Shown here one piece after another: positions 12,441 to 62,830 of a stretch of 64,000 nucleotides of DNA. The DNA comes from Paragyromitra xinjiangensis. Taxonomy: Eukaryota; Ascomycota; Pezizomycetes; Pezizales; Discinaceae. The notes under the pieces are model-generated. The model saw nothing but the letters and a program-made list of their open reading frames with translations, did not search any database and was not told the DNA's origin. The stretch is taken from NCBI GenBank assembly GCA_038503065.1, contig JBCAMK010000011.1:1426001-1490000 (forward strand), written 5' to 3'. Each line of letters starts with the position of its first letter. Positions within the stretch are counted from its first letter, which is position 1. The translations under genes were made by a program, and so were the position numbers.

Positions 12441-13676
12441 GGGTGGTATGGGTTGTGGGGTGAATTCGTTGGGTGGGAAAAATGCCTTTGTGAATATTTG
12501 TCATTTGTCTTGAAATTCGGTTTTGTTTTCAAGTGAGTGGATGTTGGTGGGGGGTATACGGCCTTTGGATTGCTTGATGGTTTTCCATAAGGTGTTGGGA
12601 TCATTTGTGTTCAGTCTTTGTTGCCAATGTTGTTCTTTGGTCAGTTTAACTTCTTTTTGCCATTTTTTGTGTAGGTTTTTGGCAATGAGTTTGTTTTCTG
12701 GTGTGGGAAATGTTCTGCTGTATTTGTTCGTGGCGCTGAGGGCCTTGTGCAGTTTGGTGAGTTCTTTGGTCCACCATGATTTGGACTTTTGGGAAGGTTT
12801 GGAAAGGGGGATTGCGGCCTCTGTTGCTTGTTGGAGCATGAGTGTTAGGGTTACGCATGCTGCTGTGGTTTGGGTTTTGGTTGTGAGTGGCATTTTGTGT
12901 ATGGGGTGGTTTTGGATTATGTGGTGGAATTTGTCCCAGTCTGCTTTGTGGATGTCCCTTTTGGGGCAAGTGTTGGAATGTGTGTTTAGGACGAATGTTG
13001 TGGTGATGGTTGCGTGATCTGATCCATCTCTGAGTCCTGAGTCGCTTTCCCATAATTGGGCGAGGTGGTCTATGCCTCTGGATAGTGTGAGATCGATTAC
13101 GGAGGGGTTGTTGCCGTTGCGTGGGAAGTGTGTGTATGTCCCCGGGTGGTTATGCAGGTGATATGTTTGTTCTTCTAGCCAGGAGACCAGGAGGTTTGAT
13201 ATGGGTCTGGTTCTGTCGATGGTTGGGAAGTGTGAATGTGTTTTGGCGCCATACCACCATGTGTGGTGGAGGTTGAAGTCTCCGCAGATGATATGGTTGG
13301 GTAGAAAGGTGTTAGTGGAGAGGTAGTTGTGTGAGGAGGGTAGATGATTTGCGTAGATGTTGGTGATGTCGATTGTTAAATTTGGATGTTTAATTAGTAC
13401 TGTTAGGCAGTTGTTAAAGTAGGTTGATTTTTGAATTGGGTTAAGATGTGATTTGATGTAGGTGACGCATTTTGGGTTTGGTGATAAAGGTGCGAATAAA
13501 GTGAAGTTTGGGATTTGAGGTGGTAGGCCAGTTGGTAGGCACCAAGGGTCTTGTAGAAGGAGTGCTATTAAGTTTTTGTTCATTGCGGCGTGTTGGGTTA
13601 CTGAATGGGTGGAGGCCATTCCTTTGGCACAGTTCAGTTGCTGTACCTGGGCTATGCCTAGTGATTTGGTTGTCAT
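12441..13676 (-). pseudogene. LINE alpha ORF2 fragment: endonuclease domain
   Basis: Starts MTTKSLGIAQVQQLNCAKGM directly after the ORF1 stop. It has the AP-endonuclease-like motifs LLLQDPW, ITNIYANH, CGDFNLHHTWWYG and GSDHATITTTF. The normal catalytic Glu of the QE(P) motif is Asp, as in every copy here. An in-frame TGA at 12501-12503 replaces the Cys codon of KCQIFTKAFF found in beta and gamma. The homologous frame ends near 12441. No RT is present, so it cannot retrotranspose by itself. Confidence 0.85.
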
Positions 13677-15368
13677 TTAATTTTTGGTGGTTGGTTTTTT
13701 GGAGCGGTTTTTTTCAAGGTATAGGGCCCTGGTTTTGGCCTTTTCTGGACAGTCAATGGCTGTGTGTTGGTTGGTGTCGCAGCATGCGCAGCGTAGTGAC
13801 ATGTGGGTGCATCTGGCTCCTCCTTTGCAGGTGGGGGTGGAGCATTTGTGGTCTTTGGTGTGCATCAGCAAAAAAATTAATTGTCACCCGGTGCGTTTTG
13901 GTCTTCAGGTGCATCCTGATCTTCTGGAAGGCCTCATTCCTTCAGAAGTACCAGGTGCAATTTTTCACTTTTAGTATGTTATCATTCAGCCTAATCCGGT
14001 AACAATATTTTTGGCACCCTGTATCATTTTGGCACCCAGTGCATCCTGATCTTCTGGAAGGCCACATTCCTTCAGAGGCACTGGGTGCCACTTTTTTTTT
14101 TTGCTGATGTGGTGAGGTTGGGCGCAGATAGCGTAAGCAGTATCGTTTTTGCATGTTGCGTCATGGTGTGCAAGTTTTTGGCAATTGCGGCATTGGGTGG
14201 TGGGGTTGATGGGGTGGTATTCTCGTGCTTTGCATGTGGCGTTGAAGAGGTTGAGGTATGTGAAACCAAGTGATTTAAGGGTGTGCTTGGCAGGTATAGC
14301 AATGACGATGGAGGAGAGTTTTTTCCCCTTGTGGCCTTCTTCAGTGCTAAGCCATATGGGTGCTTGTGCGAGTTCAACTTCTGGGAGAGCTGCTTGGAGT
14401 GCATTGGTGATGTCGGTGATTTGGGTTGGTTTGCTATTAAAGTAGGTTGGGACACTGTCCAAGATGAACTTGGACCATCTGCCGCCGACTCTGGTATTGG
14501 TGATGGGAATTTTGAGTAATGTGCAGGCAGAGGTGATTTCATGTTGGTATTGTGTGAGGAAGGTGTCTGCTGGTTCGTTTGGACGTGTGAGGAGCATGAG
14601 ATTGTCACCGTTGGTTTTCCTGACTGCGAGGATGCAGGTTTTTTGTGCTCCTAGCTTGTTGTTAATGGCGTCGAGGATTGCATCAGGGGTGATGGTTGCT
14701 GGAAGGGGTTCGGTGAGTTCCAGGATTATTTCTCTTTTGTCCGTGGTATATTCCGGCTTGTAGAGAGGTTGGGGTGTTGGTTTTTAGCCCTTTTTGTTTA
14801 GGACTTGTTGGAATGATGGTTCACCCAGTGCTGGCGCGGTGATGTTGGCGTAGGAGGTTTGGGCTCCTTGCTTCGGTTTGGTTTGGTTGATGGGTTGGGG
14901 GGCTTGAATGGTGGGGATAATGGGGGCAATTGGTGTAATCTTTGCCGTTTGTAAGCTGTGAAGTCTGTTGTCCAGTGTGCGAACATCGTTCTGTAGTCTG
15001 ATGTTCTGGGCTTTGATGTCGGCAAGTTTAGTGAGGGATACTTCATGCTGTTTGTGGCTGAATTGAATTTGCGTTTTGAGACTGCTTAGCTGTTGTTGGA
15101 AGTCAAGCTTTAAGTCTGCAATTAGGCTCTGGATTAGCCAGGCGAGGTAATTTGTTGCTTTGCCATGGTTGAGGTTTTGAAGTTCCTCAGGCGCAAATTG
15201 GGTGAAGTTCATATCGGAGTTGTAGTCCTGTCCTCCAATGTCTTCTTCATCTTCGTCGGCTTCGCTAGAGGAGCTACTGTGGTGGGACTCGGAGGGTGGT
15301 TTGTCCATCATGGAGAGGTCTGCTGCGTCAAAGGGAGAGAGTGCAGTGGAGCCTTTGGCTTGGGACAT
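13677..15368 (-). pseudogene. LINE alpha ORF1 (gag-like), broken
   Basis: Starts MSQAKGSTALSPFDAAD. An upstream in-frame ATG at 15467 exists, but MS(Q/A)xEGSTAL is the start shared by the copies. The protein has an acidic serine region, a coiled-coil-like stretch (SLTKLADIKAQNIRLQNDVRTLDNR), a conserved DKREIILELTEPLPA domain, then zinc knuckles (QCRNCQKLAHHDATC, CACCDTNQHTAIDC). It is broken by a TAA at about 14784 (AAA to TAA after NKKG) and by MITE N1, which splits the HH/TKDHKC zinc region. Confidence 0.9.
13863..14109. mobile_element. MITE N1 inside LINE alpha ORF1
   Basis: A 247-bp element with ends CATCAGCAAAAAAA and TTTTTTTTTTGCTGATG, flanked by TG on both sides. The intact site in gamma (CTTTGGTGTGGTGAGG, 31620 region) shows that removing N1 plus one TG restores the ORF. 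The interior holds two copies of a GGTGC...GCATCCTGATCTTCTGG block. No coding capacity. Confidence 0.93.
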
Positions 15369-18144
15369 TGGAAGTGTTTTGCGTTGGATGGGAGGGAAGA
15401 GGTGAGAGGAGGTTTGTTTGCTGCCAGCAACCTTTGGTGGGGTTGTTTGAACGTGGACAAAGTGCACTGGGGTTGTGATGGGTGAGGGGGATCTCCTGGG
15501 GGGAGTTTGGGGATCCAGAGTGATGACTCCGATGCAGGAGGAGGTAAGTTTCCTGAAGTGGGGTAAAAGTGGTGAGAAAAGAAGCAGTAAAGTTAAAGAC
15601 TTTTTGCTGTGTGTAACGCGGTTGCAACGCAGAATTTGGTGTTTTTGGCTATTTCAATCAGCGATGTCAGGGCATGTGTATTTATTTTTATTTATTTTTA
15701 TACGGCCCTGATACAAAGTATATCGCCTCAACTGCCACCACTAAACCCTCCCCTTAATCCTGACATAAACGAAACAACAACAAATAACAAAAACAAAACA
15801 AAACAAACAAAATAAATAAAATAAAACAATTTTTAAATATCAAGCGCATCCATAAAAGAAAAACAATTCGCGATGTTTAAATCATTTTCAAAAAGAAAAT
15901 CCCTTTTAATATCCCGTTGTTTAAAAAATAAAACTCGTTCAATGACGTAAAGTGGGCACGATAGGATGCGGTGTTTGGAAGAATCTTCTTCTCCGCATTG
16001 GCAGATGATGGGGGGTTGTCCAGGTAGGTGATCAGCTTAGGAAAGTTTGTTTCTGACTTTCCAGATTCTTTTTGCACAATGTAAAGGCAATCGAGCTATT
16101 TTTGGATTTAGTTGTTTGGTGTGGGGGATCGGTGGAATCCATTTTTGATGTAAGGTTTTGTGTGGTTGTAAGGATAGCCAGTTTAGTGTGGTTCGTGTCC
16201 ATTTGCATGATGATAGGTGGTAGGCTTCTTTGGCTAGGTGATCTGCTATTTCGTTTCCTGCGATGCCTGTGTGTGATGGGGTCCACTTGCCCATTACTTG
16301 GCAGCCAATTGATTGTAAGGTTCGTATGCCGGTGAGGGTATGCCAAAGATATTCTCTGTTGGCTGTGGTTGCGCCTGTTAATGCCAGTAGGGCATTTTGA
16401 TTGTCTGCGCATAAAAATACTGGTGCGGGGTGCATGATGTGGTTGATGAGCAGATGAATGGCTTCTTGTATGCCATGAATTTCTGCGTCTTCGTTTTCGG
16501 CGTGGTGTGCGATGTTGCAGCGATGTGAAAGGCTTTGTGTTTCAATGCCAAAGCGAATGTGGATTAAGTGTGCTGCTGCAGATGCAGTTCCATCCTCAGC
16601 TTTAGAGCCATTGGAATATAGGAGCCAGGCGTTTTCAAGTGTGCCAATCCAAGTTTTGTGTGCTTGGGCCGTTTCTTCCTTGGATTTGGAAGATATTATA
16701 ATGTTTCCAGATGGGAGATAAATTGGTAGGGAGGGAGGGAAGAGATTTTCGAGCGGTGGGGAATGTTGGAGCAGTGGTGTGAGAAGTGAAGCGATGCGTG
16801 TGAGTCCAGTCCCTTGGTACTCTTGGATTTGCGGTAATGTTTTGAGGAGGGGGAGGAAGGCTGGGTTATGAGGTCCAGTTTTTAAGATTCTAATGGCGTA
16901 TTTCTGAGTGGGCATATCTAGTAGAAGGTCTAGTGGAGGAAGAGAAGCTTCTGCGAGTAGTTTGTCGAGCTTGGTTCGTCGTGGGAGGCCTGTGATTAGC
17001 CTGGCGAGTGAATGATAAGCCGGTCTGATCTTTTCCAAAAGATTATGTTTGCCTGTCCACCAGAGGGGTGAGCCCCATAAGAAGTTGGGTATGGCTAGGG
17101 CATGGATGAGTTGGTGAAGGTTGTGTGGGGTGAGGTTGTGTGCTTTGGCCATGGTGCTGAGGCGTTGCGTAATTGCCCTGAGCCGGTTGGAAGCTTTGTC
17201 TATTTGGGGAAGGAAGGATAATTTGTCGTCGATGTGTATTCCAAGTGATTTGATTACTTGTGAGGGTAGGATTTCAAGATTGATTGATGGTATGAAAAGT
17301 GGAATATCCAGTTTTCTGATCGTTGTTTTTGTGAGGAAGTGTATGAGCTCTGTTTTGGGAGGTGAATAATTGATGTTTAAAAGTTTAGCCCTGTTGATTT
17401 TTTCCGTGAATCTACTTTGCAGGGTGAGATTGGCGAATTTGGTGCTGAAGGCTCCTTGTAAGAGAGCATCTTCATCTATGTAAATAGAAGAAAGTTGAAG
17501 ATTCGAAGGAGAAGGCGCGGTATCTAATGCCGCGCTATAAATAGTAAACGCGATAGAAGAAATGGGTGAGCCTTGTGGGAGGCCTTGTGGGAATGGTTTG
17601 GGATCTTCTTTTTGTTGATTAAAGGAAAAGGAGATTGTGCAATCATTGTTGAATTCCTTATACCAATTGGTAATCCAGTTGGGGAAGGTGTGATGTTGGA
17701 GGATGTGAAGCATTTGTGAGTGAATCACGCAATTGAAGGCTCCTTCTATGTCGGATGTGAGGAGGGATGGTCTAATTTCCCTGTTGCCGCTTTTGTTTTT
17801 GCTTCTGATGATTTTTCTGTCGAGCCATTCTTGAGCTGTGGTGAGTAGGTTGGCAAGGGGATCTATGGCAGAGATAGAGGTTCTTGCTCCTGTGTGTTGG
17901 GAATTTATTGCGCCTGTGATTATTGCGTAGGATTCTAATTTTTTGGCTACGCATTTTTCCAGGAGTTTTCCTAGGCATGAAAGTAGTGAAATAGGACGGT
18001 AGGATTTCGGTGTGGAGTAATCGGGTTTTGATGCTTTGGGGATTGGGGTGATGAGGGCGTGTTTCCAACAGGTGGGCATGGCTGAGTGAAGTAATGCCTG
18101 GTTGAAGATTTTGGGTATGAGGTTTGGATCAGCGAGGTGCGCTT

Positions 18145-19410
18145 CATCAGTAAAAAAAAAATTGCGCCCAATAGGTACATATTCCGCCCGACCGCCTGCC
18201 GCGCCCGGGCGAAACTAGCTGCAGGCTGTGCTTCCCCCTGGCGCCGCTTGGTGCCTGTACCGCTTCCCAGGCGACCTCCCACCATCTGGCAGCGCTGGGC
18301 GGCAGCTCGAGTACTTAGCAAATTTTCGATCGAATTTTTTCTAAGTCCCTGAAAACCCGGGACTTAGCAAAATTCACTTCACTCGCCTCCCAGGCACTTA
18401 GCGATTTCGAAAAATCTGGAGGTCGCTTAGTCATCACTTTGTAGTCGCCAAGTCGTCGCTTAGTCGTCGCCAAAGCAACGCCTAGTAAGACAGCAATCTC
18501 CACCTCCCCCTATTCCCTCCCATCCTTCCCACTATTGCTTCCCCCTATTCCCTCCCACCCATTCTCAACCTCGCTGTACCGCTGACATCGTGACTTTTAG
18601 GCTCGAAGTACTAAGCTCTGTTTGCAAAGAAACTCCTAGGTAACGTCTCGCTTCTGTTTATATGATTCCCGCTGATATGCCTCCTAGACTCGCTTTGATC
18701 CGCTGCTTCAACTTCCGCTGCCTCCGCTGGCTGCTTGCTTCCGCCTAAGCGAGCACAGCAAACAGCTCAATTCGCTGCCTCAGCTTCCTGAGCTTCCGCC
18801 GCCTCCGCCACATGGTCGATCCGCTGCTTCCTCCGCTTCCGCCATATGGTCGATTTGCTGCCTGAGCTTCCGCTGCCTGCGCCACATGGTCAATTCACTG
18901 CCTGAGCTTCCGCTGCCTCCGCCACATGGTCGATTCGCTGCCTGAGCTTCTGCCGCCTCAGTCAATTGGTCGATCCGCTGCCTGCCTCTTGCAGGTCGTC
19001 GATTCGCTGCTGCCGCTTCTGCCGCTTCCTCCGCTTCCGCCATATGGTCAATTCGCTGCCTGAGCCTGAGCCTGAGCCTGCGCCTGCGCCAATAGGTCGA
19101 TTCGCTGCCTGAGCTTCTGCTGCCTGCGCCATATGGTCAATTCGCTGCCTGAGCTGCCTGCGCCTGCGCCAATAGGTCGATTCGCTGCCTGAGCTTCTGC
19201 TGCCTGCGCTATATGGTCAATTCGCTGCCTGAGCCTGAGCCTGCGCCTGCGCCAATAGGTCAATTCGCTGCTGCAGCCTCCGCTGCTTGCGCCATATGGT
19301 CAATTCGCTGCCTGGGCCTGAGCCTGCGCCTGCGCCTAAGCCTGCGCCTACGCCAATAGGTCAATTCGCTGCCTGAGCTTCCTGCGCCTCCGCCAATAGG
19401 TCGATTCGCT

Positions 19411-19445
<35 letters not shown>

Positions 19446-19928
19446 CGCCAATAGGTCAATTCGCTGCCTGAGCTTCCTGCGCCTGCGCCAATAGGTCGAT
19501 TCGCTGCCTGCCTCTGGCAGGTCGTCGACCTGCTGCTGCAGCTTCCACAGAAGCTAGTTTAGCTGCGCCCTTGATATTTGTACATAGATATATAGATAGA
19601 CACATAGAATAAAGCAATTGTCAATGATATTGGTTCCATACAAGTGATTCCTGAATATTCCGGGCCCTACAAGCATACTGTGCAAATCCATTCTACAGGG
19701 CGAACTGCTGCCAAAATTCTGCGGCAGCGAGGGGCCACCCACGCCTAGAAGCGGCCCACTACACCACTTGCTACAGGAGGAAACGACCTCCTCCAGGCTG
19801 TCAAAGGTCTAGGGGCCGTGCCTCCCGGGCGCGCCGAGGTGCTGCAGCAACCTAGCAGAAGGGTAACATTCCGCCCGACCGCCCAGACCTCCAGGCGGCC
19901 GGGGCGGCTTTATCGATTTTTACTGATG
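18145..19928. mobile_element. Element C: 1.8-kb non-autonomous DNA transposon in LINE beta
   Basis: Ends CATCAGTAAAAAAAA and TTTTTACTGATG, flanked by TT at 18143-18144 and 19929-19930. The matching uninterrupted site in gamma (GAGGTGTGCTTGGGTGAT, about 30060) confirms the insertion. The layout is as in B: terminal GC-rich block, ACTTAGCAAATTTTCGATCG/CTTAGCGATTTCG block, CTATTCCCTCCCACCCATTC, minisatellite, unique block with CATAGAATAAAGCAATTGTC, terminal block. It has no transposase. C has T where the others have C at the seventh base of the end (CATCAGT), and A's right end shares this. Confidence 0.92.
18690..19545 (-). repeat. Minisatellite of element C
   Basis: Units of about 36-42 bp with CCATATGGTCAATTCGCTGCC or CCAATAGGTCGATTCGCTGC cores, joined by GAGCCTGAGCCTGCGCC hexamer expansions. 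The CCAATAGG variant is more common here than in B and D, where CCATATGG dominates. Confidence 0.85.
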
Positions 19929-20021
19929 TTGGATGATGATGGGGTATGTTATGCCATCTGCGCCTGGGGCTGAATTCTTGTTGGTTTTGGCGAGGAGTTT
20001 GCTAATGTGGTTTGATGTGAT

Positions 20022-22315
20022 TATTATTTATTTATTTATTATTTATTTATTGTTCATACTCGCATGCATCCGAAACGGATATGGCGTACAGCAGAAGAAA
20101 ACCCAACAGGAACATAAAAGAAAACAAAACAAAACTAACTAATCCTCCACCAGTTCCAACTCAGCCTCTTCTAGGCTTGTCATCAGTGAATGTGTTAATA
20201 CCCCGATCTAGTGACTCCCTCTCACAGTGTCAAGACTACCCTGGGCATTCTTCCTTTACCATCGCTTGCTTTGTGCCTATAGCACTCCTTCCACCAGGTC
20301 CAAAGACCCCTGAAGGTTGGATATATCGATAAGGGTGGGGTGTAACTTAAGTTACCATGCGATCCTGACGTTCGCTGGCACTAAGTTTGGCTTGGGTGAG
20401 TTTGAGGCAACCAGAGAAGTTACCACGATGCGGTTCGTTACAGTTCTTGCAACGGATGATGGTGTGGAGGCAGGGAGCTCCCTTGATAGTGCAAGAGGAG
20501 GTTGCGCATGAGTGGGAGGATGCTGTATGAGGCCCAGCACAGATGTTGCAGAAGGGTGTCTTGCTGGTACAGCGTTGTTGTGGGTGGCCAAAGGCCAGGC
20601 AGGTAGTGCATTGGGTGTCTGGCCCAAAGCGAAGGTATTTGGTGACTTTGTGACGAAGTCCAAACATGGAGAGCCCTCTCTCAAGGGCAGTGGTGGCAGG
20701 CTGCTTCCCCACAATGGTAAGAACCATAGAGGATGCCTGTTTCCCCTCTCTCTGCTCAGGTCTGGTGAGCCAGCGGGGGTCGCGGAGTAGGGTGGTGCCT
20801 GGGTTAAACTGCTCAACCTCAGATCTGATCTGTTGGAAGCCCTCTTCGCCAGAGGGAATGGAGGTGGGAATGTTGTGCACAACAACTTGGGTCAGGACTG
20901 CTTCCTTCTCCATGCTGTTGGCATTGGGAATGGTGTTGCGAACAACTTCCTCAAGCTTCTGTCTTTGCTTAAGGAGGGAGTCAGAGGTAGTGGAGGTGAC
21001 AGCAATGAGCTGCACATGGTGAGCTGGTGTGAATCGCACCTCTGCAATCAATGGCCTTTCCAGGGCAGCATTGACTGCATTGCGAATGAGGAGTGGGGTG
21101 ATGTCATCAGGAATGGGTAGACCATTCCTGGTGATGATGAGTGTACGGTCGCGTTTTGGGTGTTTTGGTAGGCTTGGAGGCCTTGCTGGCGGGTCTAGGA
21201 GCCCTTTTAGAGGCAACCTGAGCCCAGGAGGTGGTGGCTGGCGGGGGAGGTGGGGGGAGGTTGGCAGAGGTCAGAATGGTTGTGAGAGTCCGTTTCTGTT
21301 CCAGGACTGCAACCTTGGAGGTGAGGGTAGCCACCTTTTCCACTAGAGCTGGGTCATTGTGGAAGGTAGGGGCTGGTGGGGGTGTATTGATGGCTTTTTC
21401 AAGCTGTTTGACGCCTTTTGTGAGTGCTTTGATGAGCCTGTTCTGCTCATCCATCACTGCGAAGAGGGAGGGGTTGTAGTTCTCCCCAGTGCCAATGGCA
21501 CCAAGGCGATCCAAATTGCTGTTAGAATCATCCATCTGGATGACTGGAGGTAGGGTGGTAGAGAAGGTGAGGGGTCCCTCAGTGTCCGTCATGTCAGAGT
21601 CAGACTCTTCCAGGAGGACAGAGCCACTGTCTGTGGGCTCTGTGGCGGGCAGGGAGGCATAGTGAGGTAGGGGGACTGCTGGGCGAAGTGGCAGGGCTTG
21701 TGTAGGTGTTTGCTCTGGGTCTCCATGAAGCAAAGGCGAAAAACGGGTGTTTGGGGGTGTTGTAGGGGCGCCAAACGGCGTTTGGAGCGGGTTTTGAGGT
21801 GAACTAGTCACAGAAGAGGGAGACCTGAAGCCTCTGCCTCTCCCTCTGCCTCTAGTCGAAGAGGAAGACATAGAGGGTCTTGAACCGACAGGAGGAGGTG
21901 GGGTGTATGGGGGGGTTGCTGTGGGGCCCTGGGGGGGTCCCTGGCGGGTAGGGGAGGGTGGGAGCAGGAAGTGTCAACAACTTCTGCAAATCTGCTCGGA
22001 TCCGAACGAACGAGAGGGCGATCGAACGGGCACGGTGAGGGGACTCCAAAAAGCCCGGGGTCAAGTCAATCGGAGTAGTATTGGTGGAGATATGAGGTTT
22101 TGCAATATCTCAGGATTTGGTGAGGTTTTGGGAAAAGAGGGGTAAAATAGCGAATTCGACAACAACTTTTGCAAATCGAGAGCAACCTCGACGTACAATA
22201 GCAGGATCGAACGAGGGCAGCGAGCTGATTCCGAATAATCAAAAATCTCGTTAATCGGAGTAGTATTGGTGGAGTTGTGACCAAAAAGTCACTTTGGCGT
22301 TGTTGTTGTCGGTCT
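20022..22315 (-). mobile_element. ORF1-only LINE e1
   Basis: Inserted in beta ORF2 with a 14-bp target duplication, TGGTTTGATGTGAT, at 20008-20021 and 24567-24580. The right copy follows e2. The 3' tail is (AAAT)n-like (plus strand TTATTATTTATTTATTTATT). ORF1 is followed directly by a 3'UTR with no endonuclease or RT. The 5' leader ends CCAAAAAGTCACTTTGGCG and a TTGTTGTTGTCGGTC terminus, which is the site where e2 inserted. Movement would need enzymes from another LINE. Confidence 0.9.
20347..21871 (-). pseudogene. e1 ORF1 (gag-like), frameshifted
   Basis: Starts MSSSSTRGRGRGRGFRSP (an Arg-Gly-rich N-terminus). A variable Ser/Thr/Pro region, a coiled-coil-like segment and SWAQVASKRAPRP follow. 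The conserved domain (DRTLIITRNGLPIPDDITPL, AEVRFTPAHHVQLIAV) lies in another frame; the shift is near 21110-21150, in an A-rich stretch. The C-terminus has knuckles CTTCLAFGHPQQRC and CKNCNEPHRGNFSGC. It ends SERQDRMVT at 20347. ORF1 proteins bind LINE RNA. Confidence 0.85.
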
Positions 22316-33418: not shown

Positions 33419-33420
33419 CT

Positions 33421-34085: not shown

Positions 34086-34161
34086 CATCACACCCACACC
34101 CCTTGCTGGGCGCAAACGCACCTCCAGCCACCTCTCCCCCCACCTCACCCGAACTTCCAAC

Positions 34162-50640: not shown

Positions 50641-50655
50641 AGCAAACAAATCGAA

Positions 50656-50930: not shown

Positions 50931-50934
50931 CCCT

Positions 50935-52857
50935 TCAAAGATCCTCAGCCTCCCTCTCCTGCTCGAAGCTTGCAACAGCCCCAGCAAGGTCGACCTGCAT
51001 ATCATCAGTAGTTGGAGGAGGTGTATCGACCTCAGTTTCGATCTCGCTCTCGTTTTCTCGCTCTAGGAAAAGGGTAGGAATATTGACAGGTCCTGGTGCC
51101 TGCTCCTGATCCTCAGGATGAGGAGACTCCGAACCCTTTCGCCTAGCTTTGCTGCGAGTATCCTGATAACCTCCCTTCTCAAGGTCCCGTTTCCCCTTGC
51201 GATTCCGTAACTCACCCATATGATCGTCGTCGTCGTCATCGCTCCAAGGATCAGCTGACTCTTCCACAGGCCTCCTAGTCACCTTGGAAACCTTTCTCTC
51301 TACTTCATGCCGAATTGCACTGAGAATTTCCCCTTCCCATTCAGGAGCTCTGAGTGCTATGGCATTCCACGTCCTGCAGTGCCTGTGCCAGACCGCTATA
51401 AAGGATGTCAGTCTTCCTAGGAGAGATATAGTAGGATCCGGGGAGGGGGGAGTGGTACGATGACAGGTATCCCGAGTGAAGTCCACAGGCTCCACATACA
51501 TGCCAGTCCTCCAGGCCTTTAGCCCATACTGAAGCGCTGCTGTGATAAAACAAATGAACTCCTTATTGATCAAGGAGCTAAACGCGGCATCGGAGCGTCC
51601 CCTCATCCTTCTCCCTTTATAGTACCGGAGGAAGATGAGCTCAGCAATCGCATCATTGAGAAAGCGATTCTTATAATCCTAGTAGGATGGTCAGCTTCCT
51701 ACTCCTATTGCTCCCGAATTCGACATACCGCCATGGTAGATTCAAGGCACATAAACCTATCCTTGACTAGCAAATACTCCACCTTGTTTCGGATACTCTC
51801 AGGATTTTGCTCATCCAACTCATAGAGCTGGACAATGCTCGCCTTGGCTGCGCCAACGAGGTGAGAGCGCACCCGGCAGTGCTGTTGGCTAATCTATATC
51901 TCGTGTGAGGATATGCAGTATCCTTAAAGGAAGGGGTAATTACCTGGACGTGGTTTTCTTGGTCAGTTCCAAGCTCTCCAAGGCAAGCAATTCGGACAAG
52001 CTGTAGGTGGTCTGTGGATTGGGAATGAATACCTGACGAGTACAAGCTGCCTCCAGAGGAGCCTGACGCTCCATATCCTCCGAAGCCTTTGCCCAAGCAG
52101 CACGTATCCACCTGAGCAATGTGTCGGGGGATGGCAGGGGCTCACAAAATAGGGTCTTCTGGAAAATATTCTCCTGGCATGCATGGACCAAGGCGCGGAT
52201 AGGGTCCCCCAGCAGATATATGCTTCTGCTACTCCTTCTATGGAGGTCTCCCCCGAGACGACTCTCTGTATCGTCCATGGGAGATACAGACCTTCCACTG
52301 CTACGACTCTCACCAGATAGACGATTAGGGGAGTTGGCAGGAGTTGCCGGAGGGCGCCCTGGCCTAGCTCGCCGAGCTGGTGTTTGCTCTAGAGATTCAG
52401 GAACACGCTATTTTGCAGTTAGAAAGTACTGAATATTTTAGGATTCTCAATACCTGACGATTCTCAGTATCCCTAGGGTTCCTACCAAGTGAGCTCGCCC
52501 TCGATAGCTGGCATTACGGGCCATTTCTGCTGCTGCTGCCTGTATCTTCGTCTGCGATTTTCTAGTCCGGTTCTGACTTGGAGGGGGAGCTTGCTCATCC
52601 TCATAGAAGTCCTCATCTGCCGAATCTCCTTCATCTACTTCCTCCTCTGCCTCCTCCTCTACCTCCTCCTCCAATTCCTCTCCTTCCTGCGATGCTGGTC
52701 CTCTTTCTCTTTCTTTGCCACGTCGGGTATAATTAAGAGGCTCAGCTTCCGGATCAGCGATACGCCTTCTCCTTCCTTCGGAGGGTCCAGGTGCGTGGCG
52801 AGAGGGAGGTGGCATTCGTTTAGCTGCTTCATGGCTTCTCTTGCTGATGCCTGCCAT
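50935..52857 (-). CDS. P1 DUF6532-like protein, four exons, intact
   Basis: Exons 52857-52486, 52407-51944, 51888-51729 and 51678-50935. Introns are 56, 50 and 78 nt with GT-AG ends, and phases match throughout (579 aa). The N-terminus is basic then very acidic (a run of EEE.VEEEAEEEVDEGD). The middle is Arg/Pro/Ser-rich. The helical domain runs from PIRALVHACQENIFQKTLF through HLVGAAKASIVQLYELDEQ and NRFLNDAIAELIFLRYYKGR to KEFICFITAALQYGLKAW. The C-terminus is charged (DPWSDDDDDDHMGE, a KRDLEKGG linker, IETEVDTPPP). The domain parallels the 9740-11736 gene. Function is unknown; position in P1 suggests a transposon accessory, perhaps DNA-binding, role. Confidence 0.82.
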
Positions 52858-53289
52858 CCTTCAATGGATAATGGATGATTTGGAAGGATAATAGAAGGCG
52901 ATATAGTATTGTATGAGAGAGAATAGCGTATGGAGGAGAATAGCGTATGGAGGAGAGAGAGAATCCTGAGGAGAACCTCTGGGGGTGACGATTATAAGGA
53001 GTGTGGTCTATCCTCTAAGACATATTTGAATTAACTCTAGTCCTAATATAATACTACTGACGCAGCGCTTCGACCCCCCCCCAAAATAAACAAAATACAC
53101 GTATAGCAAATATCAAAGGATGTCCTGCATCCTCACGGTAATCCCCATAAAGCTCCCCTAATCCCAATCCTAATCCTTATACCCGATACCCCTAATCCCA
53201 ATATCCCTAATCCCACCCTTCCGACCTGTTTAATATTATAAGCATTCGCTGATCTAGTGATAGCAGTCAGAAGGGAGTATACCAATCGT
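52858..53289. other. P1 intergenic region
   Basis: Lies between the 3' end of the unknown gene and the start of the DUF6532-like gene, so it should hold the latter's promoter. It has AGCGTATGGAGGAGA duplications (52925-52960), a CCCCCCCC run at 53077 and repeated CCTAATCCCAAT (53155-53215). No gene seen. Confidence 0.5.
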
Positions 53290-54802
53290 TCAAGAAGGAC
53301 CTGCTTCATCAGTATCATCCACTTCCTCCGTATCCTTCGCTTTCCCTTTCCCCTTATCCTTCGCTTTCCCCTTATCCTTCGCCTTCCCCTTATCCTTCGC
53401 TTTCTCCTTATCCTCCGCTCCCTTCACTGCAGCCAAGGCTTCGGCAAGTGCCTCAGCTGTAAAATAATCAGGGTCCCCTGACGCAGGTGGCGTATCTGAG
53501 CCATCATACTCTTCCGCAGGCTCCCCCTTGGGGCCCGGGCCATCGTATGGGGCTCGATGAAGGACGACCAGCATCCTCGGAGCGGTTAGACTCTGTATCT
53601 GAGCTAGCCAGCCAGCAACATCTTCATCGTCGGCAAGAATAGTAGAGATTGGGTAAGTCGTAGAAAGCTCTCCAGGAACAGCATCCATAAGGGCTCCTAG
53701 CATCCTTCGAGGAGTACGGCCCACAGGTAATCGCCTCGTGGCTACACGAAGGCACTCGTTAAGGGTAGGAGCACTAATTACGGCAACCCAAGACTTGGTT
53801 AAACCCCAATTGGCCTCAGCCGGTGCTTCCCAGGGATAACGAGTCTCCTTGGTGGAAACCCTCCACCAGGCATCCGGGTCACAGAGTATCACTCGGACTG
53901 CGACTTCCTTGAAACCTGAATCACCCACACGATAGTAAGCATCCTTCAGTCAAACAAATAGAGACCATAAACAGAATCTTACCTTCCACATCTTTTTCCG
54001 TTGCCTTGATCATACCAGTAGCCTCTAGCTCCGCACGGATCTTGGTATCCGTCTGCTGCACCTGATGCAAGCAATCGCGGAGGAGACTCTGCATCGCTTG
54101 ATCTACCTGCTCCTGATCCTCCGCATGCCTTGAGCGGTAGGTTACAATAGAATGGTGCTCTGTTGCCCATGCCGTTAATAACTCCCATGCATCTACGGTA
54201 GGATTAGCAATGCCTCGGATACCATGCATCCTCAAATAGGATACGACATCACTCCGAAGGACGGTATAATGATGAGGATTATCCTCTCTAAACCCAAGGA
54301 GTGGCTTATAGTCAGTGGCTTTCATGAGCTTTTTCTTTGGCGTTTCCTTCTTTGGCGCCTTTTCCTTTATTACCACTTTCTTCGGCGTTTCAGGCTTCTT
54401 TGGAGGTTTTGGGTCCTTCTTCGGAGTCTCCGTATCCTCCTTCGGGGTTTCCGGATCCTCCGATGGTTCCTTAGCTTTGCCTTTACCTTTATCTAAAGCA
54501 GCCATGGAGGGGGATGGAGTCTGTGTATCCTTCTTGGATGTTATAAGTACCTGGTCCAAAAAGAGGCGCCAACCTATATTGTCGGAGGGAGCGGTTGGGA
54601 TATCAGTCCTCCGAGCACGAGGAGTAGGAGTTGAAGAAGTTGGAGTTGAAGGAGCTGCGGCGCGGCGGGCAAATTTTCTTTGTGTATAGTCGTCGCTGCT
54701 GGACGGGCGTTTTCGTTCGTTCGAGGGAGTCTCTGTATCTTTCGCAGGATTCTGAATAGCACTTGGTTCTGGTTCTTGATTTGATTTACTGGGAGTATTC
54801 AC
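53290..54802 (-). CDS. P1 protein of unknown function, two exons, intact
   Basis: Exons 54802-53983 and 53915-53290 with a 67-nt GT-AG intron, giving 481 aa. The N-terminus is Ser/Thr/Pro-rich with basic patches (NERKRPSSS, RKFARRAAAP). Then come PETPKEDTETPKKDPKPP-type Lys/Pro repeats. A middle domain (YKPLLGFREDNPHHYTVLRSDVVSYLRMHGI...NPTVDAWELLTAWATEHHSIVTYRS) follows, then a helix (QEQVDQAMQSLLRDCLHQVQQ). The second exon has VRVILCDPDAWWRV and RRMLGALMDAVPGELS. The C-terminus has repeated KAKDKGK and ends DTDEAGPS. I do not recognise a family. Lys-rich repeats at both ends suggest nucleic-acid contact. It lies beside the DUF6532-like gene on the same strand. Confidence 0.8.
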
Positions 54803-55598
54803 CGCCTATTTATATCAGTATCAACGTATCAAGATACTCCCCACCATGGAGTTTGCTTACCGCCCAACTTGAGCGCTGAATTTCCTCCGCGGAGTCTACT
54901 GCTGATTTGAGGATATTGGGCATCTTGAAACAGTAATATCAAGTTGGTTTAGGAAGGATATATAGTATCGCGAGCTTAGGCAAGCTAGGAGAGAAGGTTG
55001 CAGAGGATGGAGGAGAGCGAGGAGGAAGCTGAAGAGGAAGCTGAAGAGGAGGAGAAGCAGGATTTGTTTGCCCTGGCAGCGTTTATGAGGTCATATGTGA
55101 GGTATTGATAGGATCTGTGCGCAGGCCAACCCTAACCCACCTCGAAACCACTAAGCGACGCCTACACCTCCTATTTTGGGATTAGCCTGCTCCCATATTT
55201 CAACCTCATATCAACACCCCCTGAACTCCAACGAGCAGCAGCAAGAGCTTCCTACCTTTACGAGTAGTAGACTCCTACTCTAGCGACCAATATCACTCCA
55301 CTTCAGCGAGTTACAGCATCCTACTCCTTTCCAGCATCCTACTCCCTCTCAGCGTTCTACTTCTCCTCGGCATTAGCATCCCCGAGGCTGATTTCCAGCG
55401 ATCGCCGCAAATCCTCCACGGGGCAACATTCCGCTCCCGCGCAAGCTCTAGCCTGGATCCTCCCAATAGTGAGCAAATATCCTACTTCCTATCAGCGAGT
55501 GTCAGCATCCTAATTTCTCTTAGCGAGTATTGATATCATACTTTCTCCCGGCAAGGGCATTCTACTGCCAAGCGAGTTCCAGCATCCTTCAAGTTGAT
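54803..55598. other. P1 divergent intergenic region (promoters)
   Basis: 796 bp between the minus-strand unknown gene and the plus-strand transposase. It is rich in CATCCTAC, CAGCATCCTACT and AGCGAGT phrases from about 55310 to 55590, and GAGGAAGCTGAAGAGG copies at 55020-55050. No gene recognised. It probably holds both promoters. Confidence 0.6.
55310..55592 (+). repeat. CATCCTA-rich repeats before the transposase gene
   Basis: Imperfect repeats of about 20-50 bp with the pattern CAGCGAGT(T/G)(A/T)CAGCATCCTA(C/A)T. These are further instances of the ATCCT motif close to the transposase start. Confidence 0.6.
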
Positions 55599-58500
55599 AT
55601 GGAGGTTTCAAGATCCTGTTGCCCACTGTGCCGCCGCACCTACAGCTCAGCTATATCATTACATACCCACATGGCGGATATCCACCCTAAGCATACCTCC
55701 ATCGTATTTGGTCAAGGAGGCTCCCAATCCGAAGAGGATAATCAGGATGGTGCAACAGTTGGTTCATGGCGCAAAAAGAATCCAGACAGTGACTGGGAAG
55801 ATATCTGCTCTGACTCAGAAGGAGGCACATCGTCAAATGGGAGCACTGCAGGCGGAAGTGAGAAGGATGACGAGAATCCTTCCGATACGGAGGATAATGA
55901 CGTAAATACTAGTATAGGGCCCATGCAGCTGTCTGGCCCAGGGGTAATTCAATTTGCCGATGCAGCAGGCTCTTTGGGGGATGTGGAGGATCATCAGGAG
56001 GTTGTCGAATTCCTCCTTTCAAACCCATACACTCCATTTGAGACGGCTTTTGACTTCAAGCTCGCTAGGTGGATGATGGAGAGCGGAATAGCAAAAACCC
56101 GTATCAACGAGTATTTCAACGAGGAGCTCTGTACTCCTGTGCCAGGATTTAGGTCTGCCCATACGATGTACAGACTCCTTGATAGGATAGATCCGGATTT
56201 AGGCCAGGCACACTGGCAGCGAGGGAGTTGTGAAGTCATGGAGGGGATGAGGAAAAGAGTGACGTGGTATTACTTCAGGCCAATACTGGCCTGTATCCAA
56301 TACTTGCTCAAACAGCCGGCATATGCCAAGGATATGGTCTATCGTCCAATCCGAGAATACAACAACAGCGGAGAGAGGATGTATTCTGAGCTGCATACAG
56401 CAGACTGGTGGTGGGAAATACAGGTTAGCTATTCCCTCCTACGTATCCATTATTCTGCTAATTCTCGTGGCTAGGAAAGCTTATCTCGCGGAGCCACAGT
56501 GATTCCAGTCATCTGCGCATCGGATGGCACACATCTTACCAATTTCTCAGGTGACAAGAAGGCTTGGCCAATCTACTTGACGATAGGGAATATCCCTTCT
56601 GAGATTAGAAATAAGCCAACGAATATGGCCATGGTCCTTGTGGCACTCCTCCCGATCCCTCCAAAGTTTACCAAGGACAATTCAATCAATAGGCTCCGCC
56701 GGGAAGCCAATAGGGATATATTGTACGAGGTTCTAAGCATCCTTTTGAAGGATATGAGGGAGGCTGGGATGATCGGAATCCGATTAGCATGTGCGGATGC
56801 TCAGTACCGAATGTGCTATCCAATCCTTTGTGCTTGGATGGCTGACCACGCAGAGCATTGCCAACTCCACAACCTGCAGCAAAACGCCTGCCCAAAGTGC
56901 GAGGTCAGACCAGACCAACTTGGTGAGCTAGTCAGCAGCCCGAAGCGAAACGATAAGGAGTATCAGGAAGTGGCGCAATCCTTCGCCGATACTGAGATCC
57001 TCAGGAATTGGAGTATCTCGTCGAACGAGGGCTGAAAGCGCCATTCAACGTCTTTTGGGGGATGCCACACCTCCCTCGCGCTGGGGACCTTCACAAGCCA
57101 GACCTCCTGCATAATATATATCTCGGTTTATTGAAGCATTTGATGGAGTGGATAGAGAGCTTCCTTGAGAAGCACAAGAGGCAGCAGGCATTTGACGAAG
57201 TCTGGATGTCGATACCCCCCTTCCCAGGCCTGACTAGGCCAACAAAGGCCTATCGAGAGGTCACCCAGTGGCAGGGCAAGGAGATGCGCAATCTTGGCCG
57301 TATCCTTCTCGGAGCGTTTGCAGTTGCGTTGCTCAATCCTTCGAAGGATGAGCTATATCCTTTCAAGCGAGCTATCCTTTGTGTGCGGAGTTTTATCGAT
57401 TTCCACCTTATGGCACAGTATCGGAGCCATACACCTGAAACCTTGCGATATATGGATCAATACCTCGCCGACTTCCACCAGCATAAGGATATCTTCCTAG
57501 AATTCAGAGCTTCGAAGAAAGCAGGCGCCAAGGCACGAGCAACAGTCAAACGCTTGAAGTTATCTCAGGATGCCCGGCATCCTTTTACAGGATCAAGAAA
57601 AAGGCGACTGGAGGATGCTGATAGGCTCGAAAGGAGAGAGCTACTCATTGAAACGCGGCAGGAAGAAAGCCACTTCAACTTTCCAAAGATGCACCTCTTA
57701 ACGCACTTCCATGAGCACGTTAAGCAGTATGGAGGGATCCCCATGTTTTCTACTGAGGCGGGGGAGACAGCACATCGGCAACAGATCAAAGAAGGATATC
57801 GGGCATCCAATAAGAACGATTCGACGAAGCAAATCCTGCACTACTACGCACGTCGACAAGCATTGGGTATGCGTATATTGAACCTCCGGGCCCTTTCGAG
57901 GGATGCTGAGCCTCCTAATTACGAGGATGCTGAGCCTCTCAATCCCGAGCTGCAGGATATTCTTAGGCCTAGACGATCCGAGGTCCAGCATACAGGAGAA
58001 AGGGCATCCCTCCGGCGATTGTGTGGTCGACAAGCAAAGATCTCCCTTCTGCATGACATCATCTCCCAGATCAATATGCCAGATCTACCGGAACGAATAC
58101 TATACTATAGTAGTCAGAATTTGAAGGATGAGCGTCGTCTTGAGGAGGATACAGAGGCTCTTCTCACATACCCAGCTGAGATGTTCTCTCACCTTCGAGT
58201 CCCTGTGCCGAAGTTCCAGCAACCTGAGGAGTTTGAGCTTCATCGTGTGAGATGCACAGGGGAGCGAGCGTTTAGGAGTCAGGCTCCACGGAACGATTGG
58301 GTGTGGGTCCAGGTAGGGGATGAGAGCCAGTTTGGCGCTCTTCGAGGACGCCTTCCAGCCAAAGTGCTTTGCCTCTTCAAGATTCGGGATCCTCATACCC
58401 AGTATACTCATCGGCTAGTCCTTGTGAGGATGCTACGAGCCTTTCCAGGTGGAGGCAGGATTACTGACATCCATGGGATGGTGAGAGTATCTACTAGGCT

Positions 58501-58657
58501 GGCGGACGATCGATTCGTTGTGGGGATAAAGAGTATCATGGGAATAGCACATCTCATTCCCGAGCACCCGGAGCTCCAAGAGAATAATACTAAATGGCTG
58601 GTCAACAACCGAATTGATCTTACAACGTTTAATGAGATCTATACTTTAGAGAATTGA
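55599..58657 (+). CDS. Plavaka-type transposase of P1, one intron, one apparent frameshift
   Basis: Start MEVSRSCCPLCRRTYSS, with a C2H2 finger (CPLC...HTHMADIH, residues 8-28). The frame opens further upstream, but this ATG begins the finger. A GT-AG intron at about 56425-56474 joins WWWEIQ|ESLSRGATVIP. Family signatures are ICASDGTHLTNFSGDKKAWPIYLTIGNI, LACADAQYRMCYPILC and CPKCEVRP, then DLLHNIYLGLLKHLMEW, STEAGETAHRQQIKEGYRASNKND and a long C-terminal domain. The Asp of ASDGT, the Asp of CADAQ and a Glu of TEAGE are likely catalytic residues (inference). At about 57004-57010 the frame changes: EILRN continues as LEYLVERGLK. This could be a 1-nt deletion or an unrecognised intron. The rest is open to 58657. 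Confidence 0.85.
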
Positions 58658-59366
58658 GGATACTGAGTATCCTCGTAGGACCAAGAACGCAGGAATATGT
58701 GTGGATTAAGGAAACTGAGAATCCTCGAGGATTGCGAACTCTACGAACTTGTGCGGAGTGGGCGAAGGATGGGAGAGGCAAAGAATGAGAGTACTAGTAG
58801 GCGTGAGATGGGAGTAGGCGTAGGATGCTTGATATCCTACGTGGCAACACTATCAATCGACTCAAAGAATGTGGGGTAGGCGAAGGATAGGAAAAGGCGA
58901 AGGATAGGAGTAGGCGAAGGATAGGAGTAGGCGAAGGATGTGTGTAGGCAAAGAATGAGAGTCCTAGTAGGCGTGGTATGGGAGTAGGTAGAGGATGCTT
59001 GATATCCTACGTGGCAACACTATCAATTGAACGAATAAAAGAATAGAACCAATCAAATCTGAATATCACGTGCTGAGCTGCAATTACTAAGCAAAACACC
59101 TGAAATTTTGCGGGGAAGAGAAGCATTATCCTCCTAGAGATATGAAGGAGTTGCTAGGCGCTCCACGAGCGTACATCAGTGATGAAGAGCAGCCATTTCC
59201 TCCAGGAGATTAAAAGGAGTCAAAAGGATAAGGTATATCCTCCAGGAGGAAGTAGTAGCGTGACCACTCCTTATGGAGGTCAGGGAGCGCGTAGAGGTCA
59301 GGGAGGAAATTGCCTCCCCGGGAGACATGCCCAAACTCCTGGAGGCGATAATTATTTTTGCTGATG
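58658..59366. other. P1 right subterminal region, no gene
   Basis: Contains GTAGGCGAAGGATAGGA tandem units (58870-58945) and a direct duplication with 170-bp offset (58781 and 58951, both reading AAGAATGAGAGT...GATATCCTACGTGGC). After it come GGAGGTCAGGGA and CTCCTGGAGG motifs up to the right inverted repeat. Confidence 0.8.
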
Positions 59367-62031
59367 AACACAATGGAAAGCAGAAATCAACGAAGCCAAA
59401 AAACACCACTGGCACCAACGTTTATCCACCAACGATCCCAAACAAATCTGGCAGGCCATCAAGCAAACCAATGGCCGCCGTCCTCCCACTACCATCCAAC
59501 CCCTACATAACGCACCTGACTTTGAAGCACAATGCAACGCCTTCAAATCCACTTTCTTCCCACCCATCACTGCCTCTCCCCAGCCACTACCCCAAGATTG
59601 GCTCCCTCCACCCGCATCAGATCAATCCTTCAACACACCACATATCACTCCAGAACTAATCTCCAAACTACTCGCCAAAACCTCCCCCGCATCCGCTCCA
59701 GGACCAGACGGAATCCTTTACCCTCACATACAACATGCACATCAAGCCGCTCCCCTACTCATTCCAAAAATATTCACAGCCGCTCTTAAATTTGGCGCCT
59801 TTCCCAACATATGGAAACAAGCCATCGTCACACCCATACCTAAAGCAGGCAAAGACGATTATTCCAAACCCAACGCCTACCGCCCCATTTCACTATTATC
59901 ATGACTTGGCAAGATTCTTGAACGCATCATTACCAGACAACTAGAAATCGCCGCAATAAATTCAGGGGCAATTAACCACCAACACACAGGTGGGCGCACA
60001 GGAATCTCAGCAATAGATGCCCTACAACAAATCATCACACCATCCCAATCCTGGCTTAACATTCCTGCCACAACAGGACATCAAAAACAATTGCGACCCT
60101 CCATCCTCACCACAGACATCGAAGGAGCCTTCAACTGCGTCATTCATCAGCAAATGACCGCGATCTTTCTCCACTTTAAGTTTCCCACATACCTAATACA
60201 ATGGTACCAGAGCTTCACCACCAATCGCACAATAGCCTTCCGATTTAACAGTATCACAAGCCCAACATCACCCTTTAACAGCGGACTCCCCCAAGGATCC
60301 GCCACTTCCTCCATCGCCTTTACTATATATAGCGCTGCCCTAGACATGGAACCATCCCCCTCCAACCTCACCCACTCCAATACATACATTGATGACAACG
60401 CCATGCTGCAAGCAAGCTTTTGACAAAAATTCGCCACCATGACTCTACAACGTCTTAATTCCAAAATCGAAAGAGACTCACACCTCAACATCCTCTTTTC
60501 TCCGCCAAAAACAGAACTCATGCATCTGAGACTTAGCTCCAGAATCAAAGATCCCACCCCCATTCCTATTACACTCTACAATCAAAGCATTCTACCCACT
60601 GAACAAAATCGCATGCTTGGTCTCATAATCGATCGAAGATTAACCTTCCACCAACACACTCACCACATCGTCGCCTCCCTACTCCAAACCAAAGGAGCTA
60701 TTTATCCTCTCCTCAAATCCATACACCTCACCCCCGCCACAATACATCACATCTTACACATAGTCCACATCCCCAAAATGTTATGGGGCTCCCCCATATG
60801 GTGGACAGGCGCACCCACCATCATAGATAATATCCAACCAGCATACCACAGCCTCGCCCGCCTCATCACGGGCCTCCCCAGATACACCAAAATAACCCAC
60901 CTACTACGAGAAGCCGCCCTACCGCTGCTTAATTTATTATTAGACTACCATTCACAAAAATATGGCATTCGCATTCTAAAAAACAACGCGTACAATCCAG
61001 CCTTCCTCCCCCTACTCAAGCTTCTTCCACAAACCACAGAATACAAAGGAACAGGACTTACAAGAATAGCCTCCCTGCTCCAACCCCTCATCAACAATCA
61101 ACCCCTCGAAAGACCCGAATATTCCTTCCACCCGCCCTTCCTCACAATGAACTCCATACAAATTTCCAAATTCTCCAAACAACAAACAGCCGCGCAACAC
61201 ATCACCTGGACAGGCACACTTGAAAATTCCTGGCTCCTCTATACAGATGGCTCCCTCAATGACAAAGGACACACATCCTCCGCCGCATATATCGCCCACA
61301 TACGATATGGCATCACCACTCAAACTTACACACATTCCTGCGCTCTCGGACACCACGCCAAAAACGAAGACGCCGAAATTCACGCCATACAAGAAGCCTT
61401 AGCTCTCCTGCTCCAACATATTATTTTCCCTAGTCCCATCTATATATGCGTTGATAATCAAAACACCCTAAAGTCACTCGCGGGAGGACCCACACATAAT
61501 AAAGAATACCTATGGCACGCACTTAATGCATGCAATTCACTCCAAAATATAGGATGCTCCATCAATGGAATATGGACCCCCTCCCACACAAAAATTTTTG
61601 GCAACGAGAAAGCCGATCAACTGGCCACACTCGCCCACAACAAACCTCTCTGCCCATGGCACCGCCTCACCCTAGGACATCTTTCACTCCTACCCAAAAA
61701 ACATCTACTCAAATCATCGGCCTCCGACACCTCAGAGCCCATCGCGCTCCATATCGCGCAACACCTCACATCACTATCACGAAAACGCTTTTCTAAACTT
61801 GCGCAGATACGCAATCAGGCACATTTCATCGATCCCACTGGGTTCACCGATCCCTTCACATGCATATGCGGAGAACAGGATGGTTCCTTTCATCGCATCA
61901 TGTCCTGCACATTCAGAAATAAAGAACGACAGGACTTCTTTAAAGATTCAGAACCAAATTGGAATATTTTCTTTTCGTCTAAGTTAAATTTTTCCGAATT
62001 TTTTTCCTATATTAACCTGATAGGGTTATAA

Positions 62032-62243
62032 AATTATCATGCAAATAAGCAGGAAGATGATTGATTTGGGTTTTCTTTTCAGTTTATTTTTTCTCGGTTA
62101 AAATTTTATTATTATTTCCTTTTATTTTTGATTGTTTTAAAAAAGAGATTTGTACAACGGGGAGGATATATTTGTAGTTGGTGGCGGATGAGGCGATATA
62201 CTTTAGTATCAGGGCCGTAGAATTAAAACACTAAACACTAAAC
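62032..62243 (+). other. LINE zeta 3'UTR and tail
   Basis: T-rich 3'UTR, the conserved GAGGCGATATACTTTAGTAT end, then AAAACACTAAACACTAAACA. The eta 5' end follows at once. Confidence 0.85.
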
Positions 62244-62830
62244 ACTAGAGGCAGTATATAACAAGCGATTGCCCACCTCGCTTCTACTTCTCCTCCATCA
62301 TCTCCGACCGCAAACTCAACACCACAAACCATCTCTCCCAGAATCTCACAGAACCAAAAGTCTTTATCTCTTTGGCCTTGTTTATCATCACACCCCACTC
62401 CGCATCTGGGAATTCATCACTCCCATCGCTCCCCTATCAACCTGGCTCCCAATACTCCACCCAGAGTATCGCCATCACCACCCGCAACTCCTGTCCGACT
62501 TGTTTGGGCTGCTACTTCGCCAACGCCAGTTGTTTCGCCCGAATTTCTCTTTTGATTCCTACAGTCCCATCAGTCAGGGGCCCTAATCTACTCCCCATAC
62601 TAGAGGCAGTATATAACAAGCGATTGCCCACCTCGCTTCTACTTCTCCTCCATCATCTCCGACCGCAAACTCAACACCACAAACCATCTCTCCCAGAATC
62701 TCACAGAACCAAAAGTCTTTATCTCTTTGGCCTCGTTTATCATCACACCCCACTCCGCATCTGGGAATTCATCACTCCCATCACTCCCCTATCAACCTGG
62801 CTCCCAATACTCCACCCAGAGTATCGCCAT
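62244..62830 (+). mobile_element. LINE eta: 5' monomers only, cut by P2
   Basis: ACTAGAGGCAGTATATAACA at 62244 and again at 62599, a 355-bp period identical to that of delta. The second monomer is interrupted at GTATCGCCAT by P2. ORF1 and ORF2 of eta, if present, would lie beyond the right window edge. Confidence 0.88.

What the first reader, a model, noticed from the sequence alone, without database searches (positions are those of the whole stretch)
12441..62830. Two divergent head-to-tail LINE arrays with decay increasing away from the centre
Seen: three minus-strand copies (alpha, beta, gamma) and four plus-strand copies (delta to eta) face away from a 218-bp spacer. Next to the spacer, delta has no ORF lesions and gamma has two. 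Further out, beta and epsilon carry stops and insertions. Furthest out, alpha is 3'-truncated with stops and zeta has at least four stops. Inference: new copies were added repeatedly at the 5' end of older ones. HeT-A/TART arrays and Chlorella Zepp clusters grow by a similar chain.
Basis: partly seen in the sequence, partly recalled or inferred. Interest (0 to 1): 0.82.

Follow-up and report, generated by a model that had tools for sequence, protein, structure and literature searches.

The report
LINE arrays growing inside an LTR
In a fungus, two related jumping elements each seem to insert at one exact spot inside the end repeat of another jumping element, again and again at that spot, so that newer copies push older ones outwards into back-to-back stacks.

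Summary
The arrays are real, and the spacer explains them: it is the core of a 702-bp LTR of a Ty3/Gypsy retrotransposon, with 92 pattern hits in this unnamed 48.2-Mb fungal genome. Two related LINE families enter two fixed LTR sites, each duplicating 11 bp: A (minus) at LTR 406-416, B (plus) at 675-685. Of 86 B 3' ends, 39 run into another B, 43 into the LTR right end, 4 into neither. Of 22 A 3' ends scored, 8 run into another A, 13 into the LTR, 1 neither. Each insertion rebuilds the target beside the LTR core, so the next copy can land inside it. Tandem duplication is not the main route: 1 of 72 segments has its nearest relative in its own array. Outer copies have longer terminal branches in 13 arrays, shorter in 3, tied in 3; ORF lesions show no significant genome-wide trend. 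Chain growth is thus supported, but the target is a Gypsy LTR, not a telomere and not only LINE itself. Site-specific LINEs are known; I found no paper on a fixed LTR target.

The parts
33193..33472 (.).
   Evidence: blastn to the 702-bp LTR of L079: 406-685 at 91.8%; 92 pattern hits genome-wide
33193..33203 (-). Inner copy of the A target-site duplication (LTR 406-416)
   Evidence: outer LTR pieces L064-L068 and L099 end at 416, cores start at 405-408
33462..33472 (+). Inner copy of the B target-site duplication (LTR 675-685)
   Evidence: LTR match ends at 685 at B junctions; LTR right ends after B tails begin with the same 11 bp
27614..33192 (-). LINE A copy 1 (gamma), next to the LTR core; ORF1 open, ORF2 in three open pieces
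   Evidence: start at LTR core
15683..27602 (-). LINE A copy 2 (beta), split by inserts at about 18146-19928 and 20022-24539
   Evidence: A-A junctions
12441..15671 (-). LINE A copy 3 (alpha), 5' part; cut at 12441 by other DNA
   Evidence: an A 3' end followed by the LTR left part at C11:1419142
33473..39491 (+). LINE B copy 1 (delta), with an extra 356-bp 5' monomer; both ORFs open
39503..47138 (+). LINE B copy 2 (epsilon), with an insert at about 44415-46398
   Evidence: B-B junction
47150..62245 (+). LINE B copy 3 (zeta), with a 9.4-kb insert (about 49941-59370) that encodes a Plavaka transposase
   Evidence: B-B junction
62257..62835 (+). LINE B copy 4 (eta), 5' fragment of two monomers, cut by another insert

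Best explanation
Two related LINE families insert by target-primed reverse transcription at two fixed sites in the LTR of one Ty3/Gypsy family, in opposite orientations, with their 5' ends facing each other across the LTR core. Each insertion duplicates 11 bp of its site. The inner duplicate stays joined to the LTR core, so the target is rebuilt on the 5' side of the newest copy and the next insertion can land there again. Older copies are pushed outwards and decay. Shown: fixed sites, duplications, LTR pieces on both sides, head-to-tail copies, unrelated neighbours within arrays. Supported statistically: the age order. Inferred: target priming itself, that the endonuclease reads the LTR side of the site, and that the LTR core supplies the start of the innermost copy's transcript.
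For: LTR identity of the spacer and Gypsy domains between its LTRs. Exact sites and 11-bp duplications. B 3' ends: 39 into B, 43 into LTR, 4 neither of 86. A 3' ends: 8 into A, 13 into LTR, 1 neither of 22. 17 of 17 A 5' ends outside A-A junctions abut the LTR core. Nearest relative in the same array in 1 of 72 segments. Outer copy longer-branched in 35 of 46 within-array pairs, permutation p .0006; without this window 24 of 34, p .016; by arrays 13 against 3 with 3 tied, p .011. In nine of nine copies with an extra monomer ~44 bp of LTR stands before the body's 11 bp.
Against: Position effect is not significant for the B 5' segment alone (p .32) and borderline for B 3' (p .056); 11 of 46 pairs and 3 arrays go the wrong way. 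ORF lesions show no significant trend. 4 B and 1 A 3' ends are not explained by these junction patterns, though one of the 4 B is a B-B junction. Insertion at an internal tail-duplication junction would leave the same structure, so growth only at the core is not proven.
Confidence: 0.86

Rival explanations
1. Zepp-like self-targeting: the LINE's own 5' end, not the LTR, is the target, and the LTR is one of several places where a chain started.
For: 39 of 86 B 3' ends and 8 of 22 A 3' ends run into a copy of the same family; the 11 bp is present at internal junctions too.
Against: 43 of 86 B 3' ends and 13 of 22 A 3' ends abut the LTR at one base, so the LTR without any LINE is a target. The chain base is nearly always this one site.
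Confidence: 0.08
2. Tandem duplication by unequal crossing-over made the arrays from one inserted copy.
For: Regular head-to-tail spacing; one whole array on C19 is present twice at 0.3-0.5%, so duplication does occur at a larger scale.
Against: Nearest relative in the same array in 0 of 30, 1 of 20, 0 of 15 and 0 of 7 segments; neighbours differ by ~10% or more.
Confidence: 0.02
3. Template jumping: several RNAs were joined head to tail in a single insertion event.
For: The extra 5' monomer equals the body of its own copy in delta (0 of 260 differences) and nearly so in L019 (1 of 259) and L062 (5 of 260), as a jump at the 5' end would give.
Against: L036 (21 of 258) and L038 (16 of 258) do not show this. 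Array members differ by ~10% and differ in age on average, whereas one event would give equal ages.
Confidence: 0.03
4. Assembly artefact: the order of similar copies was made by the assembler.
For: No reads could be seen; repeats are hard to assemble.
Against: The same junctions recur 39 (B-B), 43 (B-LTR), 30 (LTR-B), 8 (A-A) and 13 (A-LTR) times over many contigs, and neighbours are too different to be confused easily.
Confidence: 0.01

Closest known systems
Zepp / ZeppL LINEs of green algae
   Same: Nested LINE insertions on existing copies make tandem clusters, one per chromosome, thought centromeric (passages of PMC3446292 and PMC8226300).
   Different: Zepp targets existing copies and is often 5'-truncated. 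Here copies mostly start at one fixed base, the chain starts in a Gypsy LTR, and two families grow back to back. Kinship to Zepp was not tested.
Celine LINE of poplar centromeres
   Same: LINE that sits mostly inside other TEs, above all Gypsy-like elements, and is partly nested in itself (passages and section 11 of PMC11288735).
   Different: [quoted passage not shown] here one 11-bp site per family.
Target-specific non-LTR retrotransposons (R1, R2, Tx1 clade, Utopia and others)
   Same: Insertion at one exact site in a multicopy target; [quoted passage not shown]
   Different: Target is the LTR of a Gypsy element, used at two sites in opposite directions. Xenopus Tx1L in Tx1D is a recalled parallel (LINE into a DNA transposon); one search found no paper with those names.
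HeT-A / TART / TAHRE telomere arrays of Drosophila
   Same: Head-to-tail LINE chain that grows at one end (recalled; only the listing of PMC5537684 seen).
   Different: Growth is at an internal LTR site, not a chromosome end; no telomere here.

Membership tests
site-specific non-LTR retrotransposon | LINE coding capacity: endonuclease, RT | tested here: met
   Delta ORF2: PF14529, PF00078, PF00075
site-specific non-LTR retrotransposon | insertions at one exact site of a multicopy target | tested here: met
   B: 82 of 86 3' ends run into LTR or B at the site; A: 21 of 22
site-specific non-LTR retrotransposon | endonuclease cuts that site | not testable with these tools
   needs a nicking assay
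Tad1 clade (fungal LINEs) | place in an RT tree with named Tad1 elements | not tested
   Domain set fits by recall only; no tree was made
Zepp-type self-nesting LINE | existing copies of itself are the main target | tested here: not met
   43 of 86 B and 13 of 22 A 3' ends abut the LTR, not a LINE
telomeric LINE array (HeT-A/TART type) | chain at the chromosome end | tested here: not met
   Window lies at 1.43-1.49 Mb of a 2.06-Mb contig
Ty3/Gypsy (the target element) | LTRs with short duplications; RT, RNase H, integrase in this order | tested here: met
   5-bp duplications on 4 of 6 single LTRs whose two ends were readable (L079, L088, L092, L093; not L081, L087) and around the pair L095/L096; domains in L100
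centromeric retrotransposon cluster | one cluster per chromosome, bound by centromeric histone | tested here: inconclusive
   83 of 92 LTR core hits lie in the densest 260 kb of their contig; 21 of 22 contigs have at least one; no chromatin data

The most novel reading that the evidence does not exclude
The LTR core is a shared two-way address and promoter for two LINE families. Only the copy next to it is transcribed; each new insertion unplugs its predecessor, a conveyor belt that stacks its own history inside centromere-like regions. The Gypsy family has begun to escape by changing the A site: among the sites examined the TTTTA form is never occupied by A (0 of 17 occupied, 38 of 70 unoccupied; Fisher p 1.5e-5, not corrected for LTR kinship).
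Probability: 0.35. Interest if true: 0.85.

Novelty: new variant of a known kind. Interest (0 to 1): 0.72.

Why it matters
It extends exact LINE targeting to the LTR of another retrotransposon. Because the site is rebuilt at each insertion, position in the stack is a relative clock that can be read from one genome. Two related LINEs that use two sites of one LTR in opposite directions are a natural test of how endonuclease specificity evolves, and the variant A site hints at an arms race between two kinds of retrotransposon. If the clusters are centromeres, fungi would have a counterpart of the algal Zepp centromeres, built in a different way.

Tried and rejected
Spacer as a structured RNA or tRNA gene: no Rfam match at gathering score in the window, one chance-level match near the spacer, no tRNA. 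Spacer as LINE 5' UTR only: dropped when LTR copies without LINEs were read. The first distance run was inflated by foreign inserts and was replaced by reference-anchored distances, in which L034 (B 5') and L063 (A 5') fell out for shortness. L018 (C18 plus array) was not used because I could not assign an LTR core. The duplicate array C19b was dropped but is's 72 segments and. One search dropped pieces with fewer than 80 aa matched, and its A queries, being pieces of gamma, cannot show gamma's own breaks. Not tested: centromere identity, clade tree, relatives in other fungi. One paper search was left unused.

Full report
What is there. The window is C11:1426001-1490000 of an unnamed fungal genome of 48.2 Mb in 22 contigs. 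Self-comparison shows a minus-strand array of LINE family A (alpha, beta, gamma) and a plus-strand array of family B (delta, epsilon, zeta and a fragment, eta), back to back. Delta ORF2 carries endonuclease, RT and RNase H domains. A and B are related but distinct: 64% aa identity in ORF1, 45-53% in ORF2.

The spacer. A search with 33150-33480 found other copies at 94-97% identity (40 of 112 candidates scored), and a 28-mer from it has 92 matches with up to 3 mismatches. I fetched 20 of these with flanks and compared them with the ten. The spacer is the inner part of a 702-bp unit that begins TGTAACGG and ends CCGTTACA. Among six single units without LINEs whose two ends were readable, four have a 5-bp flanking duplication (L079, L088, L092, L093) and two do not (L081, L087). 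One pair (L095, L096) encloses 6.5 kb and is flanked by GGTGG. Inside this pair an open frame has RT, RNase H and integrase domains in Gypsy order (L100), on the strand opposite to the orientation used here. The spacer is therefore the core of a Gypsy LTR.

The sites. With the LTR as ruler family A enters at 406-416 and family B at 675-685, each with an 11-bp duplication. LTR parts on the outer side of A arrays end at 416 in L064-L068 and in L099; L099 is the outer end of the A array of this window. Tails are (AAATA)n for A and (TAAACAC)n for B.

How strict it is. B 3' ends were located by B sequence alone: 86 matches. Within 70 bp, 39 are followed by another B start, 43 by the LTR right end, 4 by neither. 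One of the 4 (C10:972664) is a B-B junction. Of 93 LTR right ends, 43 follow a B 3' end. For A, one search scored 40 of 152 candidates; of the 22 3' ends among them, 8 run into another A start, 13 into the LTR left part and 1 (C10:1038851) into neither. The 17 A 5' ends outside A-A junctions all abut the LTR core at LTR 405-408; two further weak partial matches were not counted as ends. Of 85 B starts matched by a pattern that includes the 11 bp (so biased to this site), 39 follow a B tail, 30 the LTR core, 14 an extra 5' monomer and 2 were unclassified; one of the two, C2:3013797, is the body start behind a monomer in L080.

Chain or duplication. The nearest copy lies in the same array in 0 of 30, 1 of 20, 0 of 15 and 0 of 7 segments (B 5', B 3', A 5', A 3'). 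Tandem duplication is not the main route. A whole array on C19 is present twice at 0.3-0.5%, so larger duplications occur.

Age order. Median terminal branches by position from the LTR core are B 5' .027/.029/.035/.051/.053, B 3' .025/.037/.103/.068, A 5' .040/.055/.129, A 3' .048/.079/.176 (the last positions hold one or two copies). Spearman p values are .32.056.033 and .020 for branches, and .63.050.068 and .024 for nearest-neighbour distance. With the C19 duplicate removed, 35 within-array pairs have the outer copy longer and 11 shorter (permutation p .0006), and 24 against 10 without this window's array (p .016). The segments of one copy are not independent, so I also counted arrays: 13 outer-older, 3 outer-younger, 3 tied (p .011). 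Data: 29's 39 B junctions, 11 of 30 LTR-B starts, all 8 A junctions, 16 of 17 inner A ends, 6 of 14 outer A ends. ORF lesions rise only mildly: B 5 in 12,733 aa at position 1, 7 in 11,911 at position 2, 5 in 6,517 beyond; A 8 in 12,949, 3 in 4,985, 1 in 591; Spearman p .29 to .93. So the clear decay gradient of this window is stronger than the average, while the age order behind it holds on average.

A clock caution. The LTRs that hold the arrays have terminal branches of 0-3% (window core .030, its outer piece .007 over about 150 bp). Insertions cannot be older than their LTR. The ~10-15% between copies is therefore mostly older than insertion, unless LTR copies are kept alike by gene conversion, which I did not test; several A and B lineages seem to have been active side by side.

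How it probably works. Target-primed insertion leaves LTR core + 11 bp + new LINE + tail + 11 bp + older LINE or LTR. Core plus 11 bp is the original target again, so arrays can grow outwards from the core on both sides. I infer that the LTR side is what the endonuclease reads. Insertion at internal junctions cannot be told apart by structure and may explain some of the 11 misordered pairs. The B 5' monomer has ~44 bp of LTR in front of the body's 11 bp in nine of nine copies compared. The monomer equals its own body in delta (0 of 260), nearly so in L019 (1 of 259) and L062 (5 of 260), and by short comparison in L080, L094 and L097 (2, 0 and 0 of 72-74), but not in L036 (21 of 258) and L038 (16 of 258); L034's body is cut by an insert and cannot be judged. 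This shows that LTR sequence has been part of copied template and suggests transcripts that start in the LTR core; that is inference.

An arms race? The 17 A-occupied cores read all have the TATTA form of the site; 38 of 70 unoccupied LTR sites have the TTTTA form (Fisher p 1.5e-5). LTR kinship is not corrected for; a younger LTR subfamily that simply came later would look the same.

Setting. 83 of 92 LTR core hits lie in the densest 260 kb of their contig, and 21 of 22 contigs have at least one. This is centromere-like; no chromatin data are at hand.

Known relatives. Zepp makes nested LINE clusters on existing copies, one per chromosome (PMC3446292 and PMC8226300: passages). Celine sits mostly in other TEs, chiefly Gypsy-like ones, with a unique duplication each time (PMC11288735: passages and section 11). 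[quoted passage not shown]). Searches for a LINE with a fixed LTR target returned none in their listings. The library lacks most subscription papers, so this is weak evidence of absence.

Noticed in passing
20022-24539 (minus): A third LINE family (C), two ~2.3-kb copies head to tail with an ORF1-like frame. The first sits in A's ORF2 with a ~13-bp duplication; the second sits at the 5' start of the first with a 15-bp duplication.
   Followed up: partly
2477-5455, 18335-19516, 44416-46400: Three copies of an element rich in 40-bp tandem repeats; two of them interrupt beta and epsilon.
   Followed up: no
49941-59370 and 62831-63929: Plavaka-type element inside zeta and a related left end that cuts eta.
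   Followed up: partly
33473-33817: Extra 356-bp 5' monomer of delta: B start, ~50 bp of unknown origin and ~44 bp of LTR; 14 B starts genome-wide follow such a monomer.
   Followed up: partly
C19:~915-936 kb and ~1013-1039 kb: The same B array present twice in opposite orientation at 0.3-0.5% difference.
   Followed up: partly
C11:114-230 kb and 1097-1118 kb; C14:1440-1552 kb: LTR core hits away from the main cluster of their contig.
   Followed up: no
13862-14105: A ~240-bp insert in alpha with short degenerate repeats.
   Followed up: no
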